The notes below the pieces were generated by a model. That model searched no databases, was not told where the DNA came from, and saw only the letters and a list, made by a program, of their open reading frames with translations. The translations under genes and the position numbers were made by a program. Below, piece by piece: positions 42,826 to 54,467 of a stretch of DNA of 64,000 nucleotides (position 1 is the stretch's first letter; each line of letters begins with the position of its first letter). Origin of the DNA: Naematelia aurantialba (Eukaryota; Basidiomycota; Tremellomycetes; Tremellales; Naemateliaceae); assembly GCA_021527695.1 (NCBI GenBank), contig JAKFAO010000012.1:990622-1054621 (forward strand). Direction: 5' to 3'.

Positions 42826-43928
42826 TCATTCCACTGCTTCCTGCACAGTGCCATCATCCTCTGTCATCTCCCCATAGATCTCTAGCATGTCTTCAGTGTC
42901 GCTCAGCGTGTCGTCCGGCTGCTCGGCGGGGAGGGCCTCGATACGACGCTGTACCTCTTCTCTAGGGTCTAGTCTGCGTCAGCTTTGGCTACAAGCGTTG
43001 CGCACACCTCTCGCCGCCACCCAACCAGGGGGATAACCCCACTTCAGCATGGAGTACAGCCACGGCCATCGTCCGAGTTTCCTATCCCACTTGGCGGCTG
43101 AAATGGTGTTCCCGATTTCGGACACGTTCAAGCCTATATCGTCTTCCATGTAGAATACAGCCCCAGCCAGCTCATCACTAATAATGCCTGGCTCGAAGCT
43201 GCGGACAAGCTTCAGGCGTCGGAGCCGTTCGCATTGGTCGAAGACATACTCCGAAAGGTAGGCGAGATGGGCAGGTGGAGGTAAGTCGCGAGCTCCTTCG
43301 AAGACCATTTGTGACAGAGCGATCTGCAGGCGATCCCGAGGCTGCGGACACTCGCGCAGTGTATGACCGGGTTGGCCACAGTTCCAGCATACCACTCTAC
43401 GCTTTCAGCAACTCTCAGGTGGACTAGCTCACCTCGTTGAGATAACAGATGAGAGGTTTGTCCTCCCTGCAGTGTAAATGACCTCTTTGACGCCCTCGAT
43501 CACACCTTGCACTGGGTTGTCGTCAATCATCCACGCCTCTTCTCCTTCACGCTCCACCAAATCTTCCACGACATTGACATCACTTCCCACTCGGATTTCA
43601 CTGAATCCAGCAAAGCTCTGCCCGACAAGGTTGGAATATCCGTCTGCGACTCTGTGAGCAATATCCTCACCATATAACCTGGAGAACTCCGAGTTCAGCA
43701 GGAAGAGGCCGACCCGACGGGGCGGCGCCAAGGTGGGAGTGAAGCTTGCTTCCGCTCAGATCCGGGCGCCTCTCTCACTTGCAGATCTAGCTCCTCGTCG
43801 ACACGCCCACTCTGGCTTGTGGCCAGGGTGGTGTTTAGCACTGATTGGTACGGGGTAAAGTCGACGCTTCTACCATTGATCCTGAGATCTTCTTCTCCTG
43901 CACTGCATCCTGTTGGCACATGCTCCAT
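42826..43928 (-). CDS. CCHC zinc-knuckle protein with PSP domain (ZCCHC8-like)
   Basis: CCHC knuckle VCWNCGQPGHTLRECPQPRD followed by a PSP-type region: FEPGIISDELAGAV, then LYSMLKWGYPPGWVAARD. This pair of domains is typical of ZCCHC8/NEXT-type RNA-surveillance and spliceosome-associated proteins; that role is inferred. Splicing: a 32-nt intron at 43718-43687, one before the knuckle (about 43430-43395) and one near 43009-42970, after which the protein continues DPREEVQRRIEALPAEQPDD and ends EAVE at TGA 42826-42828. About 330 residues. The chosen ATG (43928) lies inside the 3' end of the glutaredoxin-like gene, in another frame, so the N-terminus is less sure than the rest. Confidence 0.7.
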
Positions 43929-46409: not shown

Positions 46410-47962
46410 CTAAGGTTCAATGTCTTCAGTAGTATCGTAGAACTCTCTTGCCAGGCGACGTTGAGTTTCCAAGGTTGTTTCACCCTACGTAGATTATGAG
46501 GTACGTGCTGGACGAGGTACCTACATTCTCAGGCGCGATGGCGCGCACGAAGAGGTATTTGCGACCAGCTGAAGAGTCAGCTCCAGACGTCGAGCTCGTT
46601 AAGTTTTGCCACTAACTGAGCAACTGGACGTCCACTTTGCCCGAGAGCGAGGTATGTTTGCCCCCGAAGGCAACACCACCGGCCTCGGCGAGAATGCATA
46701 ATCCGGCCTGGCGCATCAGCCACCTTTACCTTACAGTCCCAGAGGTAACAACGACCCCAGAGATTGACACTCACACAAACATCCCAAGGCCAGCACTGAA
46801 TGATTAGCATCACTCTGACAATGGCGCTCAACTCACGCCAATCTCCCAGTGCCTGCCAACATCAACTTTTCCGTCTCACTCGAGCATGCTCTAAGGTGAG
46901 AAAGCACCCACATGTCTTGGCCTCCACTTGCAACTAGGCATAGATTAATGGAAGCACATCCAATGCTGCGTAGGGAGTGAACCATCTTGCCTCCTTGCTC
47001 AGGCTGCCCGGCGAGTTTGCGGAAGGTCTTGAGTCTCGAGCGAAGGACGTCTGCCGTCCGAGAGCCTCCGATGTCAACGTGGATTCTAGCAATCAGCTGA
47101 CGATATCATGAGAGAACTGGATTGTGTGCGTACAGCGCTTCATGAAGGGAAGCCAGAGGTCTGGGCTTCCCCGTGATTGGCAGGCGAGTTTTGCCGTTCA
47201 GATACGCCCCGTGCCCTTGGGCAGCCGAGTACTATCCGTCAGTTAATCTTACTTGGGAGTCCGCATTTCGTACGAGTATGTCAAGGAAGGGGTTGTAGAC
47301 CACACCAACGACGGGAGTACCGCCGACTGCCAACCCAATGGAGGTTGCCACCATCGGGTAGCCATGGATCTGCAAGCATATGGGTAAGCTTTGGAAGATA
47401 TCCATGCTAAGCTACTCACGAAGTTGGTAGTCCCATCAATAGGACTACGTTCAGCGTGTCTTGTCAACATTCGCTTGAATCCACGCAGTTGAGGCTCACT
47501 CAACTGGAGGAGTTACAGTTAGGAGTTGGCTCGTCTGGGCTTCTTAACACTTACCGATCCAGGTTGGGGCATCGGGGATGTTTTGCCCAACATATGTCTC
47601 TTCACCGATACTTCTCTCAGTGGCCGTGCAATACCGAAGACTCACAAGCTGTGATCGGGATACGCCTCTGCAATCCGACGGAAAATGAACGCCTCCACAG
47701 TCTTGTCAACCTCTGTGACAAGCTGAACGAGCCACCTTCAGCTGTGACTTTCCCTGTCCCTTCCATAGACGCACGTCGATGCTGTTGCTTTTGGTGTACT
47801 CGCTGGTTGCAGTTGAAGCAAAGCGTTTGGTCTGACCTACACGAATCATGTCCCCAGCCTGGAGCATCAGCCCGTGTACTGCACCATGAAACGAACTTCA
47901 AGGCCAAGCTTGATAGCAAAAGCTAGAATCTCTTGGACGTCCAGAGTCTTCTGTGAGAACAT
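46410..47962 (-). CDS. Inositol monophosphatase family protein, many exons including a 4-nt micro-exon
   Basis: Mg2+-dependent, Li+-sensitive phosphatase family (IMPase; QutG-like relatives exist). Spliced order: LDVQEILAFAIKLGLE, SNSIDLVTEVDKTVE, PDHSFIGEETYVG (metal site GEE), WIVDPIDGTTNF, IHGYPMVATSIGLAVGG, GHGAYLNGKTRLP, HWEIGCWPWDVCAG (WDxxAG), LCILAEAGGVAFGG, and GRKYLFVRAIAPEN with EFYDTTEDIEP at the end. About 320 residues, normal length. Roughly twelve exons. The metal motif DPIDGTT is only restored if the 4 bases at 47500-47503 are an exon between two introns. Divergent from the Zn2Cys6 gene at 48556. Likely substrate inositol-1-phosphate or another sugar phosphate. Confidence 0.85.
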
Positions 47963-48555: not shown

Positions 48556-50407
48556 ATGAGCCAGCAGTCGTGCGATCAGTGCCATGCGCGTCGTAAAAGG
48601 GTCAGTTCTGGCGGTTTTGCAGAAAAATGGTCTTGATTCTGTCACGTCTAGTCGCTCATGTTAGTAGTGTGATCGCGCCTGGCCTTGTGCGCTCTGCATC
48701 AAATCAGAACTGCGATGCACCTACGCCAAGCGACTAAAAAAACGCGGTCCGAAGGGCAAAGTCATAGAAAGGCTTAGACATGAACAAGCAGAAGTGGAAG
48801 AGGTGGGCGCGGAAGAGGAGCTGGCATTAGCCAGGGAGGTATATGCTGTGAGAATGCCCTCACACCTCGAGCTGTCACTTATAGAAGCTGACTGCCATTG
48901 AAGACTCGGGTTGTGTCATACTCTTCGCCTTCCCGCGACCCTGGAGTGATCAATATGTCCAGCCCGGCAGATCTGGATATCTCTTCTCTGAAAACATCGA
49001 CATCCTCCACCCTCAACCTCGATCTCAGCGCATTATTGCTCCCATTGCCGTCACACTTGCCCCCAAGTTTCGCTGCATATGACAGCACCTTTTTGGGTGG
49101 CCTTTCCGTGGGGAACATCAATGCGCTCGTCGCAAAGTACTTTGATCATATTCACCCCTGCTATCCCCTGGTCGACCGAGAATGGTTTCTCGATCGGCTG
49201 CATTCGGGCGAGCCCTTCCTTGACAGTGACAGCGTGTTTGCTACCATGGTTCTCTCCATTTGCGCCTTGACGATGGCGTTTATTTCGAACGTGCTTTGCT
49301 TGGACAAGAGCGCCGTCTTCAAAGCTAGGCGCGACGCGATCACCTCACAGATCATTCTTCGGCATTACATGCAACCACTGGGAGACGCCACTACGCTCGA
49401 ACAGGTCATCACTACATTCCTTCTGGGTCTCTACTTTTCAATCGTATTTGGCGATCGGGCAGGCCACTTCCGCATTGCGGAAGCTGCACATTTGGCAAAA
49501 TCGCTGGGCTTGCATCGCCGGAGCACTTACACAGGTATGGGCACGGATGAGCGAAGGCGGAGTCTGGCGGTCTTTTCTTGTGTTGTGCCGTCAAACAGGT
49601 TAGTCGCGGACACTCACCCAAAATGCACTCTCTGTGGCAGTGTGCTGATACAGGTAGAGCCTGCGAGCTCCGACTGGGGCTGAGTGAGATTATCCACATC
49701 GGACGAGACTCTTTGCTCGTCGAACTCGGCGACCCAGTCGATCTCGTCGATGCTCCCTGCACACTGTTTGGTTTGAACGAGCGGACAGATGGGGTTCATC
49801 ATCTCGCAAGGATGGTAGCATTGTACGACATTGTGTCACCAAACTTTTCGCGATGTGCGCGAGATCAATGCGACCTCGAAACTTGCCGTCTAGATCCATT
49901 CGTGATAATCAAGTACGCAAACAAGCTGGAGGAAGCGGCGTCGACCATGCCCATATCCATGTTTCGAGCGATGCAGCCCCTTCTCTGCGGGTTGCAGGAA
50001 ATGCGCTGGATCGAATTCTTCATTGCCCATCGATGGCTCGCGGCGCACACATGGCATATTGCTATGCGACACAGCATTGACATGGCCAAGCTGGAAGGTG
50101 GACGGTATCAGCAATGGCCACTGAACATCGTCAGCGACGCTGCTCAGATTATCACTGCAGCGAACACGCAGTCCATGCACGTGCTAGGGACCGGTTTGGT
50201 AAGTTGTCAAGACTGTATCGCGATTTATTGCTTATAAATCCTCCACAGGTCCACCGACTGTCCTACATCAGCGCATGCGGCGTCACCTATCTTCAAACCA
50301 ATCCGGCCGACATGCACACAGTTTCACGCGCGAGCGCAGATCTGCAAATCATCTCCGATGCTGTCAGAGACTGGGACTCAAAGTGCTGGACGCGATGCCT
50401 GTTTTAG
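48556..50407 (+). CDS. Zn2Cys6 transcription factor (Fungal_trans type)
   Basis: Binuclear cluster at the very N-terminus, MSQQSCDQCHARRKR + CDRAWPCALCIKSELRC across an intron: C-x2-C-x6-C-x5-C-x2-C-x6-C. Basic linker KRLKKRGPKGK, then a Glu-rich coiled-coil-like helix. The regulatory domain contains INALVAKYFDHIHPCYPLVD, then FLDRLHSGEPFLDSD and GDRAGHFRIAEAAHLAKSLG, with the ERRRSLAVF-like motif of the xylanolytic-activator group. Introns near 48601-48667, 48841-48905, 49602-49665 and 50201-50249. About 555 residues. It shares a promoter with the IMPase gene and faces the sugar-type transporter, so it may be a pathway-specific regulator of this block. Confidence 0.85.
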
Positions 50408-50707: not shown

Positions 50708-52725
50708 TTAGTGCTTCTTGGCACCAGTCCTTTCGACCTCGGTGACGTAGGTCCTCATCTTGCGCGGCAGTACTTTAGCTTCGAACATCTCGTCCAGTTC
50801 AGCAAAGCTGCGGCCTCGGACCTGGGGAACGTGTCAGCATCTCCAGTTCGAATCATGACGGATCGTTTGCCTCACTTCGGGCAGAGTAAAGAAGTTGACG
50901 ACAAGTCCAATACCTCCCGTGCAGGCAAACAAGTACAGCGTCTTGACCCCCCAGTTGCGCGCGCCAGTGCCTGTGGAGGCAAGCATGAGCGGCACCTGAG
51001 TGAACTATCAGCGACCAGCCGATCGCCAAAACACTCCAACACACTGTGTAACCGAACATGATGCTGAAGCACTGAGACCCATTGATGACGACACCCGCTG
51101 TGCGGGCGCGTAATCTAGGCGTGGATATCTCTGTGGTGAGACCCCAGCCAACTCCCGCCAAGCAACCGGCGTAGAACACGACCCAAACACAGATGACGCC
51201 AAGGGTAGCCTTCAAAACGACATCGGTCCGCTTGACGACGCCGAGAGTGCCCAAGATCAAATTGCAGACAAAGCAGCCGGTGCCGCCCGTAAGGATAAGG
51301 ACGCGGCGTCCAAATCGCTCCGTCAAGTAGAAGGATACAATCACCATGAATGCCAGTAGTCCACTTCCCTGCATCAGCCGAAGTCATAATGCGCCGTAGC
51401 TTCTCACTATACGATGCACGTGGCTTGGAATGGCTGCTTGATACCAGCCTGTTGCAAGAAGTCTACAGACATGAGCGACACTCGACATATGTGATAGGCT
51501 TTTCCAATTTACAGGTAGCATAGGAGAAGACGACCGATGCACCGGACCACTGGAGCATGATGACCCCGAAGAAGCTCGCAAGCGTCCGCCGCAAATTCGG
51601 TCCTTTGAATATCTCCTTGAAGGTTGACTCCTTTTGACTGCGCAGAGCTGCCCGCTCCTTCTCGAGCTCAACCTGCATGACTCGATACTCGTGTTCAACG
51701 TCGTAGCCTTCGACTCCCCGGTTGATCTTGCCCAAGGTAACCATGGCCAGGCTATCAAGGCCCTTGCGAGCATAATACCAAGGTGACTCTTGGACCCACG
51801 GGAGACACAATAACCAGAGTCCGACCATGACCCACTCTGAATAGACCCCACGCCTCCAGCTGTACTTGTCGGTGACGTTGACAATTTGAAGCGCGATGGC
51901 TGAGCATAGTTGGCCCAAGGCAAGAAAGAGGCCGTAGCTGGTAGCGTTAGGAGAATACGTTCAGGAATGTGCGATGTACCAGCAGAGCAGCGCGCCGCGA
52001 GTTTGCACAGGCGCAACTTCCGAGATATACTACGATAGTCAGAACGTCGAGCAACGCAATAGATCGCACGTACAAGTAGAGACGTGGCCTGGCCCATGCC
52101 TGCTGCAAAGCCAGCAACGATCTTGGCACCGAGCCAACCACCGATTGTGGTAACAAATTGCTCCAGAAAGACACCCTAGGGATTTAGCCAGTCGATCAAA
52201 ATGAAACTATGCAGTATGTACCGCGATGATCAAGATGGTCGCTATGTAGAAAGACGTTCTCCGCCCGAATCTGTCAGCTATCAATGTGCTGACTTGCTGG
52301 CCGAACAGTTGAAAGGCACCGCTCTAATATACAGGTCAGTGGCAGGGCAGAACGATGCACAAATGAAACCAGTGGCTCACAGTACCGCTCCAGGCGGACA
52401 CATACTCCGCATCAAGTGCCTTCGTTCCGGTGGACTGGACGATGGAGCCGAACTGTTCGATGAAACCGGCGTTGCTCACAATGCTGCCGGTCACAGTGCC
52501 TTGATAGCCTTCCATCAGGACGCAGACACCACCGAAAAAGCAGAGCATCGTTGCGCGCCAAAAGGTTGTTGTGGCCTGCCACTTCGTGAGGCCGGCAAAG
52601 GCGCTCGCTATTCCGCTGTCTTCGGGCAGGAGCTCTGTATCCTTGTCATCCATCATCTCGCCAGCCTCCATGGCACCACCATCGACAATGGCAGGCTCAA
52701 GTGGCAATGTGTTGATGGGTGTCAT
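50708..52725 (-). CDS. MFS sugar-type transporter
   Basis: Major facilitator of the sugar-porter family, about 540 residues with about 12 hydrophobic segments. The N-terminal cytosolic part is acidic (MEAGEMMDDKDTELLPEDSG). MLCFFGGVCVLMEGYQGTVT is TM1 with GYQGT. DRFGRRTSF is the loop-2 GRR motif, PWVQESPWYYARKG matches the PESPRW motif after TM6, and ERFGRRVLILTGG is the second GRR loop. The end reads RGRSFAELDEMFEAKVLPRK, typical of the family. Several introns. Homologues carry hexoses, maltose, inositol or quinate. Divergent from the GDPD gene by 515 bp, hence possibly co-regulated. Ligand not determinable. Confidence 0.85.
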
Positions 52726-53240: not shown

Positions 53241-54467
53241 ATGTCACCCCTACATGTCGGTCCCTACCCAAACTACGACGTCCGAAAGATCTTGGATGCT
53301 TGGAAGTATCCGAAGGGAGATCTCGTGAGCCTCTGCGCCCATCGCGGAGCTTCCCACGATGGCGGTACCGAAAACAGCTATTCGTCCGTTGAAAGGGCCG
53401 CCAAAGCAGGATGGGAGTCGATCGAGATCGATTTGCGCCTAACTAAGGACGGTAAAGTGGTTGTGTTTCACGATGAGGGCCTTGGCCGCTTGACAGATGT
53501 TCCAACGCCATCCAACCAGGAGCCTTACAACCCGTTCACGGGCAAGGGCTTCAACCCACTTGTCAAAGACGTGTACTGGGCGGGCGAAATGGAGCATCTC
53601 TCACTTCGAAACGGCTACGGTTGGGTCACGTCAGTGGAATGAAGCACTCGAGTCTTTGGCGATGCTAACGTTTTCCTTAGCTCTGAGCACCCCATCCTCC
53701 TGGAAGAGCTGTTGGTCATGCTGACTCGATTGGTCACCCACCGAATGCTGAATATCACTTAGGCTTACCTTTATCCGGGACCACCACATCAACATGTTGG
53801 TGCAGTTTGACCTCAAGGAGCTTGCAGTTGTGGGACCCTCTTTTGACATCATCTGGGATTTTGCCAACGCAGATGGCGTACCAGCTTCGGGTATGCGAGT
53901 CTTTCATGCTGGCGACAACTTCTGCTAACGAGATAGAGTGGTGCGTCTTCAAGCTGCGTACGGAATGGTTCCCGACACCGGAGGTCTGGGAAAATCAAAG
54001 CTATGTGCAGGGAGCAATAGCTGCCGGTAGACGATTGCCGCCAATCACCCCGCTGTATGAGGTGGACAAGGGCCAGAGTACGCTTCGAGTACAGTGCCCA
54101 ACTGGGTTTTTGGGCTCATTCATCTACAGCAACAGAGACCATGGCGGCATGGGCGGAGAGGGACTACTTCATCGCGTACGAGATCGCCCTCAAGCATGTG
54201 AATGGGACTTTCCAAGAAGCCGTCGACTTTGTAAAGTCCGACCGCAGCAAGTGTAAAGGCCACGGCGGTTGGTTCATCGGCAGCGACTTGCCCCGGGGCT
54301 ACTATGAGGGTGTCACTACGAGGTGGGGTTTCCCGGACATTCCTTATCACCTCTAGCGGAAGGTGTTTGGGTAGATCGCCGCTTATGACAGTTGGGACGA
54401 CACCAGCGTGCGCGCCGACATAGTGGCCGAAGGGCCGGAGGTCCCTTGCCAATTTCATGAATGGTAA
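53241..54467 (+). CDS. Glycerophosphodiester phosphodiesterase (GDPD)
   Basis: Hydrolyses glycerophosphodiesters to glycerol-3-phosphate plus an alcohol, or similar diesters. LVSLCAHRGASHDGGTENSY holds the catalytic HRG and E-N motif. WESIEIDLRLTKDGKVVVFH carries the metal Asp/Glu and the second catalytic His (FHDEGLGRLTDV). HPILLEELL is the PxLEE motif; LVQFDLKELA gives the late Lys. The last exons read WFIGSDLPRGYYEG then IAAYDSWDDTSVRADIVAEG, with stop TAA at 54465-54467. No signal peptide, so probably intracellular. About 345 residues. Introns near 53632-53679, 53720-53761, 53899-53935, 54127-54135 and 54312-54374; one donor is GTTGGT. Start ATG 53241. Confidence 0.85.

What the first reader, a model, noticed from the sequence alone, without database searches (positions are those of the whole stretch)
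47389..47600. A 4-nt micro-exon inside the IMPase active-site motif
On the minus strand, GGATCG|gtaag...cctccag|TTGA|gtgag...cgtag|TCCTATTGATGG joins to give WIVDPIDGTTNF. Without the TTGA piece (47500-47503) neither the frame nor the metal-binding DP of DPIDGTT is produced. Both flanking introns have good donors, acceptors and CTAAC/TTGAC-like branch sites. Four-base exons are very rare, and here one carries part of the codons of a catalytic Asp motif, so its inclusion would switch the enzyme on or off.
Basis: seen in the sequence. Interest (0 to 1): 0.75.

Follow-up and report, generated by a model that had tools for sequence, protein, structure and literature searches.

The report
Four-base exon in an enzyme's active site
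A fungal inositol monophosphatase gene very probably carries a four-base exon that completes the code for a catalytic aspartate; it looks like a fixed part of the gene that public gene models of related yeasts often get wrong, and nothing shows it to be an on/off switch.

Summary
The 4-nt exon TTGA (47503-47500, minus strand) is very probably real. The gene parses as 14 exons and 13 introns, 308 aa; the 266 aa scanned match inositol monophosphatase, PF00459, at E 5.6e-69. Of 176 GT-AG parses of the local segment, 30 are in frame and stop-free; 6 keep DPIDGT, all 6 use the donor that ends TTGA, and only the proposed one gives PTWIVDPIDGTTNF. A paralogue in the same genome has the same exon lengths from exon 3 on, with one uncut 60-nt exon where this gene has 56+4 nt. 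Among the proteins listed by two capped searches, 21 of 36 named Tremellomycete models are garbled at this motif, against 1 of 127 others; 14 of the 21 have residues compatible with a 5' splice site read as exon. Five of 5 unnamed, cDNA-like relatives are intact. So the micro-exon is probably old, conserved and often missed. The 'switch' has no support: 4 nt is not a multiple of three, and the skipped, retained and shifted forms I read break the frame or lose the Asp. No transcript of this gene could be examined, and the last acceptor is weak. A good new member of a known kind.

The parts
47897..47962 (-). exon 1 (66 nt), start codon ATG at 47962
   Evidence: manual parse; 57 nt in the C9 paralogue
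47775..47858 (-). exon 2 (84 nt)
   Evidence: 81 nt in the paralogue
47646..47722 (-). exon 3 (77 nt)
   Evidence: same length in the paralogue
47555..47610 (-). exon 4 (56 nt), ends ...TGG ATC G
   Evidence: with exon 5 equals the paralogue's 60-nt exon 4
47504..47554 (-). intron 4 (51 nt), GTAAGT...CTCCAG, CTAAC branch-like site; the intron that the paralogue lacks
47500..47503 (-). exon 5, the 4-nt micro-exon TTGA: last two bases of a Val codon and first two of the Asp90-equivalent codon
47445..47499 (-). intron 5 (55 nt), GTGAGC...CGTAG; same codon position (GA|Y) as the paralogue's intron 4
47420..47444 (-). exon 6 (25 nt), rest of DPIDGTTNF
   Evidence: same length in the paralogue
47486..47506 (-). 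perfect 8-bp hairpin (5-nt loop) CAGTTGAG-TGAGC-CTCAACTG holding the acceptor CAG, the micro-exon and the first base of the next donor
   Evidence: 94 of 20,000 flank shuffles make a stem of this kind; noticed after the fact
47274..47369 (-). exon 7 (96 nt)
   Evidence: same length in the paralogue
47134..47231 (-). exon 8 (98 nt)
   Evidence: same length in the paralogue
46912..47085 (-). exon 9 (174 nt)
   Evidence: same length in the paralogue
46837..46852 (-). exon 10 (16 nt)
   Evidence: 16 nt in the paralogue too
46775..46795 (-). exon 11 (21 nt), encodes CWPWDVC with the second conserved Asp motif (WDV)
   Evidence: 21 nt in the paralogue; the matching residues are missing from 4 of 36 Tremellomycete models (rows printed)
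46617..46707 (-). exon 12 (91 nt)
   Evidence: same length in the paralogue
46525..46568 (-). exon 13 (44 nt)
   Evidence: same length in the paralogue
46410..46484 (-). exon 14 (75 nt with stop)

Best explanation
TTGA at 47503-47500 is a genuine, constitutively required 4-nt exon of an inositol monophosphatase gene. One intron splits the Asp90-equivalent codon (GA|Y) and is shared with the paralogue; a second intron, 4 nt upstream, splits the preceding Val codon (G|TY) and so leaves TTGA stranded. Shown by sequence: the local parse, the intact protein, the paralogue with only the first of these introns. Inferred: the two short introns are recognised across the intron and removed one after the other, because with 4 nt between them U2AF/U2 at one site and U1 at the next would hinder each other; whichever goes first makes the micro-exon the end of a normal exon. 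Inferred from gene models of relatives: the two-intron state is old in Tremellomycetes, and the C9-type paralogue lost the upstream intron.
For: 308-aa protein from 14 exons, 13 GT-AG introns of 35-67 nt; 266 aa of it match PF00459 at 233.1 bits. No 1-intron parse gives DPIDGT; the 6 DPIDGT parses among 30 viable (176 tried) all use the donor at 47499, and only one keeps PTWIVDPIDGTTNF. Paralogue exons 3-12 match the window's exons 3-13 in length, with 60 = 56+4. Motif intact in 15 of 36 named Tremellomycete models, 126 of 127 others and 5 of 5 unnamed cDNA-like rows (the rows are the best 120 of each of two searches). Fourteen of 21 garbled models have G plus residues compatible with a 5' splice site directly after W-I; the window's own nearest one-intron product, WIGNPIDG, arises in that way and is what two models of Cryptococcus depauperatus show (P0026, P0028). 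P0019 has 20 extra residues between WI and VD, compatible with a retained 60-nt intron GTGAGT...YTAG ahead of the 4 nt. Close models differ at this spot: P0034 v P0015, 291 of 300 aligned residues identical, WIVDP v WIGDP. Garbled models lie in several starred clades of the tree.
Against: No RNA read of this gene was available. The final acceptor scores weakly and a parse with the acceptor at 47460 scores higher. Some inner exon restoring DP[IV]DG arises in 16,590 of 100,000 shuffles, so the weight lies on the 4-nt length, the Val, the donor and the paralogue. Garbled models are indirect evidence; no genomic DNA of those species was at hand, and codon choices read back from protein are only compatible, not proven. 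Seven of the 21 garbled models are garbled in ways that do not show a donor. The five cDNA-like contigs are unnamed and may come from genes with one intron or none here. The 15 intact Tremellomycete models may include species with only one of the two introns.
Confidence: 0.92

Rival explanations
1. Tandem donor: a single 106-nt intron starts 4 nt inside the donor (GTAA|GTG, first base 47550) and ends at 47445, giving in-frame WIGNPIDGTTNF with no micro-exon and an inactive or altered enzyme.
For: It is in frame and stop-free. WIGxP is what 10 of 36 Tremellomycete models show.
Against: Its donor scores 0.6 against 6.9 for the normal one. It replaces the metal-binding Asp by Asn; a D90N change in human IMPase is reported to suppress activity (PMC2834668, passage). 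The x residue differs between models (D 6, N 2, I 1, A 1) as donor letters would, which suits an artefact better than a conserved protein. Unnamed cDNA-like rows read WIVDP[IV]DGT, 5 of 5. In six of the ten models x is Asp, so in those species the tandem form would keep the Asp: there the rival is weaker to dismiss.
Confidence: 0.03
2. Regulated switch: the micro-exon is included only under some conditions, so that splicing turns the enzyme on and off (non-productive splicing otherwise). The hairpin over its splice sites could be the control.
For: A perfect 8-bp stem covers the acceptor CAG, the micro-exon and the first base of the next donor; 94 of 20,000 flank shuffles make such a stem. The 191-nt segment folds better than shuffles, z -2.59, 1 of 200 as good. 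The final acceptor is weak. A 20-nt micro-exon with glucose-dependent use is reported in Trichoderma (PMC11121469, abstract and passages).
Against: Length is not a multiple of three; skipping gives a frameshift, and keeping intron 4 or intron 5 gives a stop (read from sequence). The hairpin was noticed after the fact, stems of this size begin at 25 positions of the window's minus strand, and its conservation is untested. No expression data.
Confidence: 0.06
3. Spliceosomal twin intron (stwintron): after the first excision a donor GTTGAG forms across the joint and nothing between the two introns is kept.
For: After removal of intron 4 the joint reads G|TTGAG, a possible GT donor (read from sequence).
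Against: The product reads TGG ATC TCC TAT TGA, a stop within the motif (read from sequence). This nested form was not among the parses, which only scored the GTTGAG at 47504 in its unspliced context (-4.5), a different place.
Confidence: 0.01
4. Pseudogene or assembly error: the gene is broken or misread here and the micro-exon is a coincidence of reading.
For: The finding rests on one assembly; no reads were available.
Against: The rest of the gene is intact over 14 exons; Val-Asp is restored with the family's residues; the paralogue has one of the two introns at the same codon; models of relatives fail at the same place.
Confidence: 0.02

Closest known systems
1-nt exon of Fusarium CYP621A (PMC12940212; abstract and discussion read)
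   Same: Ultra-short exon inside a conserved motif, found because exon phases do not join; a relative without introns guides the parse.
   Different: 1 nt against 4 nt; there transcript reads confirm it, here the evidence is indirect; another gene and another class of fungi.
9-bp DPN mini-exon of plant invertases and fructosyltransferases (PMC3340406; abstract and passages)
   Same: Mini-exon encodes part of a conserved motif with an Asp-Pro.
   Different: 9 nt, a multiple of three; [quoted passage not shown]
Micro-exons of basidiomycetous yeast bglA genes (PMC9142197; passages)
   Same: Intron-dense basidiomycete genes with exons down to 5 bp (Sirobasidium magnum) and 6 bp (Rhodotorula minuta), from comparison with cDNA.
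   Different: Other gene; the passages seen do not say that an exon carries a catalytic codon.
Micro-exons of Phanerochaete P450 genes (PMC1184071; passages)
   Same: Shortest exon 6 bp, many exons of 29 bp or less, small introns.
   Different: Other gene family; exons given as 2-10 aa.
Misannotated conserved micro-exons of plants (PMC8831610; search listing and start of abstract only)
   Same: Exons of 15 nt or less, often missed or wrong in annotation.
   Different: Plants, with RNA-seq for 2,398 exons.
20-nt switch micro-exon of Trichoderma Xlr2 (PMC11121469; abstract and passages)
   Same: Fungal micro-exon missed by a gene model.
   Different: Inclusion depends on glucose; here there is no sign of regulation.

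Membership tests
Inositol monophosphatase family (PF00459) | Match above the curated Pfam score | tested here: met
   233.1 bits against a cut-off of 27, for the 266 aa scanned
Inositol monophosphatase family (PF00459) | Conserved motifs GEE, DPIDGT and WDV in register with solved mammalian IMPase | tested here: met
   alignment to 1ima over query residues 6-249; the first Asp of DPIDGT is chain residue 90 by my count. That these motifs hold metal ligands is from PMC2834668 (passages) and recall
Obligate ultra-short exon (constitutive micro-exon) | Flanked by two introns with canonical GT-AG ends | tested here: met
   GTAAGT..CAG and GTGAGC..TAG; the last acceptor is weak
Obligate ultra-short exon (constitutive micro-exon) | Needed for frame and for a conserved motif | tested here: met
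   only 1 of 30 viable parses gives PTWIVDPIDGTTNF
Obligate ultra-short exon (constitutive micro-exon) | Same exon in relatives | tested here: inconclusive
   inferred from garbled gene models, 21 of 36 Tremellomycete rows; no genomic DNA of relatives; the one paralogue read at DNA level lacks the upstream intron
Obligate ultra-short exon (constitutive micro-exon) | Present in mature transcripts of this gene | not testable with these tools
   no RNA reads; only cDNA-like contigs of unnamed relatives, 5 of 5 intact
Switch-like micro-exon | Length usually a multiple of three, so that both forms stay in frame | tested here: not met
   4 nt; the 'usually' is from PMC11121469 (passage), whose own 20-nt exon is an exception
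Switch-like micro-exon | Inclusion varies with condition or tissue | not testable with these tools
   no expression data
Stwintron | An internal intron interrupts a splice element of an external intron, and no exon remains between them | tested here: not met
   the nested product has a stop in the motif (read from sequence); DPIDGT is kept only by parses that end an exon with TTGA

The most novel reading that the evidence does not exclude
The 4-nt exon has been kept at a catalytic Asp codon since the ancestor of Tremellales and Trichosporonales, and in this gene a hairpin over its splice sites makes productive splicing conditional, so that the amount of active phosphatase, from a gene that lies near a transcription factor, a sugar-type transporter and a glycerophosphodiesterase, is set by splicing.
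Probability: 0.06. Interest if true: 0.65.

Novelty: new member of a known kind. Interest (0 to 1): 0.42.

Why it matters
It is a clean test case for how small an exon the fungal spliceosome handles. It also suggests that one missed 4-nt exon has corrupted the active-site motif in 21 of the 36 public Tremellomycete models listed here, a class that includes human pathogens (recalled). Anyone using those models could wrongly call the enzyme mutated or express a dead protein. The paralogue, with one of the two introns, gives a natural comparison for how a micro-exon arises or vanishes.

Tried and rejected
Single-intron, tandem-donor, stwintron and retention readings of the segment: rejected as main products (and sequence reading).

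Viral contigs were scanned for DNA encoding a close relative, in the hope of genomic DNA of other fungi: 2 stretches matched a pattern, none encodes a relative. The own genome shows two such genes at the sensitivity used, C4 (this one) and C9. No bacterial, plasmid, phage or E. coli collection was searched.

My first motif filter demanded W before the motif and so marked many sound F/Y/C-type proteins as bad; the wider filter was written after seeing that, and its counts are the ones used. A second filter (WD after residue 180) was too loose to show loss of the 21-nt exon; that statement rests on the rows printed (P0009, P0025, P0034, P0036). In one search the list of donors was mine; GTATGC and GTATGA, the only ones that fit P0036, are not among the 25 introns I parsed in the two genes.

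The 36 Tremellomycete rows come from capped lists (best 120 of 6,369 and of 6,881 matches) and are not independent: three are from Cryptococcus depauperatus (P0026, P0028, P0039) and two are near-identical Cutaneotrichosporon cavernicola rows (P0035, P0042). Class membership was looked up for Naematelia aurantialba and Phaffia rhodozyma only; for the other genera it is recalled. Close models can differ elsewhere too: P0034 also lacks the 21-nt exon's residues and P0037 a further stretch.

This micro-exon was not seen in the listings of the searches that bear on it (lists capped, open-licence papers only); some searches were about other matters.

Full report
What is there. On the minus strand, 47962-46410 encodes a 308-aa protein in 14 exons with 13 GT-AG introns of 35-67 nt. 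A 266-aa part of the conceptual protein matches Pfam PF00459, inositol monophosphatase, at E 5.6e-69 and aligns over residues 6-249 with solved mammalian IMPase. In that alignment the first Asp of DPIDGTTNF falls on residue 90 of the 1ima chain (my count). The genome has 20,997,016 bases in 15 contigs, which fits Naematelia aurantialba NX-20 (20,998,359 bp, 15 contigs; PMC8777972, passages); the identification is inferred. The best protein match is from Saitozyma sp. JCM 24511, 81% identity.

The micro-exon. Exon 4 ends TGG ATC G; intron 4 is 47554-47504; TTGA is 47503-47500; intron 5 is 47499-47445; exon 6 begins TCCTATTGATGG. Together: TGG ATC G|TT GA|T CCT ATT GAT GGG, W-I-V-D-P-I-D-G. I listed every GT-AG parse with one or two introns of at least 30 nt between the start of exon 4 and the end of exon 6: 176 parses, 30 in frame and stop-free, 6 with DPIDGT. 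All 6 use the donor at 47499, that is, they end an exon with TTGA, and only the proposed parse keeps PTWIVDPIDGTTNF. No one-intron parse gives DPIDGT. The nearest one-intron product is WIGNPIDGTTNF, from a donor shifted by 4 nt. Against the reading: the acceptor at 47445 scores -0.0 on a model trained on 23 other introns (11 here, 12 in the paralogue), just under the weakest training acceptor (0.1), and the parse ending at 47460 scores higher in total (19.3 v 17.7); that parse also includes the micro-exon but replaces the Asp.

Chance. In 100,000 shuffles of the 110 nt, an in-frame, stop-free inner exon of 1-30 nt arises in 62,865, one that restores DP[IV]DG in 16,590, a 4-nt one that restores DP[IV]DG in 2,080, a 4-nt one that gives W[IV][VIL]DPIDG in 487, and that with a good donor in 32. 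So restoring the motif by some inner exon is not rare; the exact length, the Val and the donor are. The motif was chosen after it was seen.

The paralogue. The same genome has one other detected copy, on C9 (locus L009). Its parse gives a 304-aa protein. Exons 1 and 2 differ in length (57 and 81 nt there, 66 and 84 here); its exons 3 to 12 are 77, 60, 25, 96, 98, 174, 16, 21, 91 and 44 nt, and the window's exons 3 to 13 are 77, 56, 4, 25, 96, 98, 174, 16, 21, 91 and 44 nt. So the structure agrees except that the 60-nt exon is cut by intron 4. The paralogue's intron splits the same Asp codon (GTCGA|GTAAGT..TAG|CCCC) as intron 5 here. The micro-exon is what lies between an intron that both copies have and one that only this copy has.

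Relatives. Two searches listed their best 120 of 6,369 and of 6,881 matches, 168 different proteins. Of these, 36 are named Tremellomycete rows (class mostly recalled); 15 of 36 are intact at the motif, against 126 of 127 others; the exception, P0070, has lost one residue in DPIDG. Five unnamed rows that resemble Tremellomycete proteins come from contigs of 972-1,372 nt, too short for the usual introns and so cDNA-like (inference); all 5 are intact. Of the 21 garbled models, 10 read W-I-G-x-P with x = D (6), N (2), I (1), A (1), which is what results when the first four bases of a GTGAGT, GTAAGT, GTATGT or GTGCGT donor are taken as exon in place of the missing four; 4 more begin W-I-G and continue with residues compatible with GTGAGY, GTAAGT, GTGAGW or GTATGM. 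These are compatibilities read back from protein, not DNA. The other 7 of 21 show no donor. P0019 has 20 extra residues between WI and VD, as a retained 60-nt intron GTGAGT...YTAG would give (reading). Close models differ at this spot: P0034 and P0015 agree at 291 of 300 aligned residues yet read WIVDP and WIGDP; they also differ in the 21-nt exon. On a tree of 47 rows the garbled models fall in several starred clades (Vanrija, in this gene's own six-row clade; Kwoniella; Cryptococcus; Cutaneotrichosporon), while the C9 copy pairs with Naematelia encephala, whose model is intact. The simplest account is one old micro-exon, missed again and again by gene finders, with loss of the upstream intron in the C9-type copy. 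Gain in this copy and several relatives is not excluded. I had no DNA of those species.

How it works. Both introns are short and would be recognised across the intron; they are probably removed in sequence, since 4 nt is too little room for both sites to be occupied at once (general splicing knowledge, recalled; inference here). Skipping the exon gives a frameshift. Keeping intron 4 leads into a stop (..GGT AAG TGT TAA), and so does keeping intron 5 alone (..GTT GAG TGA) (read from sequence). The Asp to Asn product of the shifted donor should be inactive by analogy with human D90N (PMC2834668, passage). So the exon is required, and nothing shows that it is a control point. A perfect 8-bp hairpin, 47506-47486, does cover the acceptor CAG, the micro-exon and the first base of the next donor (94 of 20,000 flank shuffles make such a stem; stems of this size begin at 25 positions of the minus strand of the window); it was seen after the fact and, with the weak last acceptor, is the only hint toward regulation.

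What is known. Micro-exons of a few bases are a known kind: 1 nt in Fusarium CYP621A (PMC12940212), 5-6 bp in basidiomycetous yeast bglA genes by cDNA (PMC9142197), 6 bp and up in Phanerochaete P450 genes (PMC1184071, passages), the 9-bp DPN exon of plant invertases (PMC3340406). Misannotation of conserved micro-exons is reported for plants (PMC8831610, listing and start of abstract). This case is a new member of a known kind, notable for its size, its place in a catalytic codon and its apparent conservation.

Verdict.

Noticed in passing
46852-46837 and 46795-46775 (minus strand): Two further very short exons, 16 and 21 nt, in the same gene; the 21-nt one encodes CWPWDVC with the second conserved Asp motif, and 4 of 36 Tremellomycete models lack the matching residues (P0009, P0025, P0034, P0036; rows printed).
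   Followed up: partly
47506-47486 (minus strand): Perfect 8-bp hairpin with a 5-nt loop whose stem contains the acceptor CAG, the micro-exon and the first base of the following donor.
   Followed up: partly
48898-49680 (+), 50856-51374 and 51466-51918 (-), 53241-53639 (+): ORF pieces near the gene match Fungal_trans (PF04082), Sugar_tr (PF00083, two pieces) and GDPD (PF03009) (the GDPD piece also matches solved phosphodiesterases; one transporter piece matched no solved structure). With the phosphatase this could be a cluster for using glycerophosphoinositol or inositol phosphate; function inferred, not tested.
   Followed up: partly
42982-43395 (minus strand): ORF piece with a CCHC zinc knuckle and part of a PSP domain, as in SF3b2- or ZCCHC8-type RNA-processing proteins (recalled).
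   Followed up: no
protein rows P0001-P0042: Public models of this enzyme in Cryptococcus, Kwoniella, Vanrija, Cutaneotrichosporon and other genera are garbled at the active-site motif in 21 of 36 named Tremellomycete rows; a correction target for databases.
   Followed up: yes
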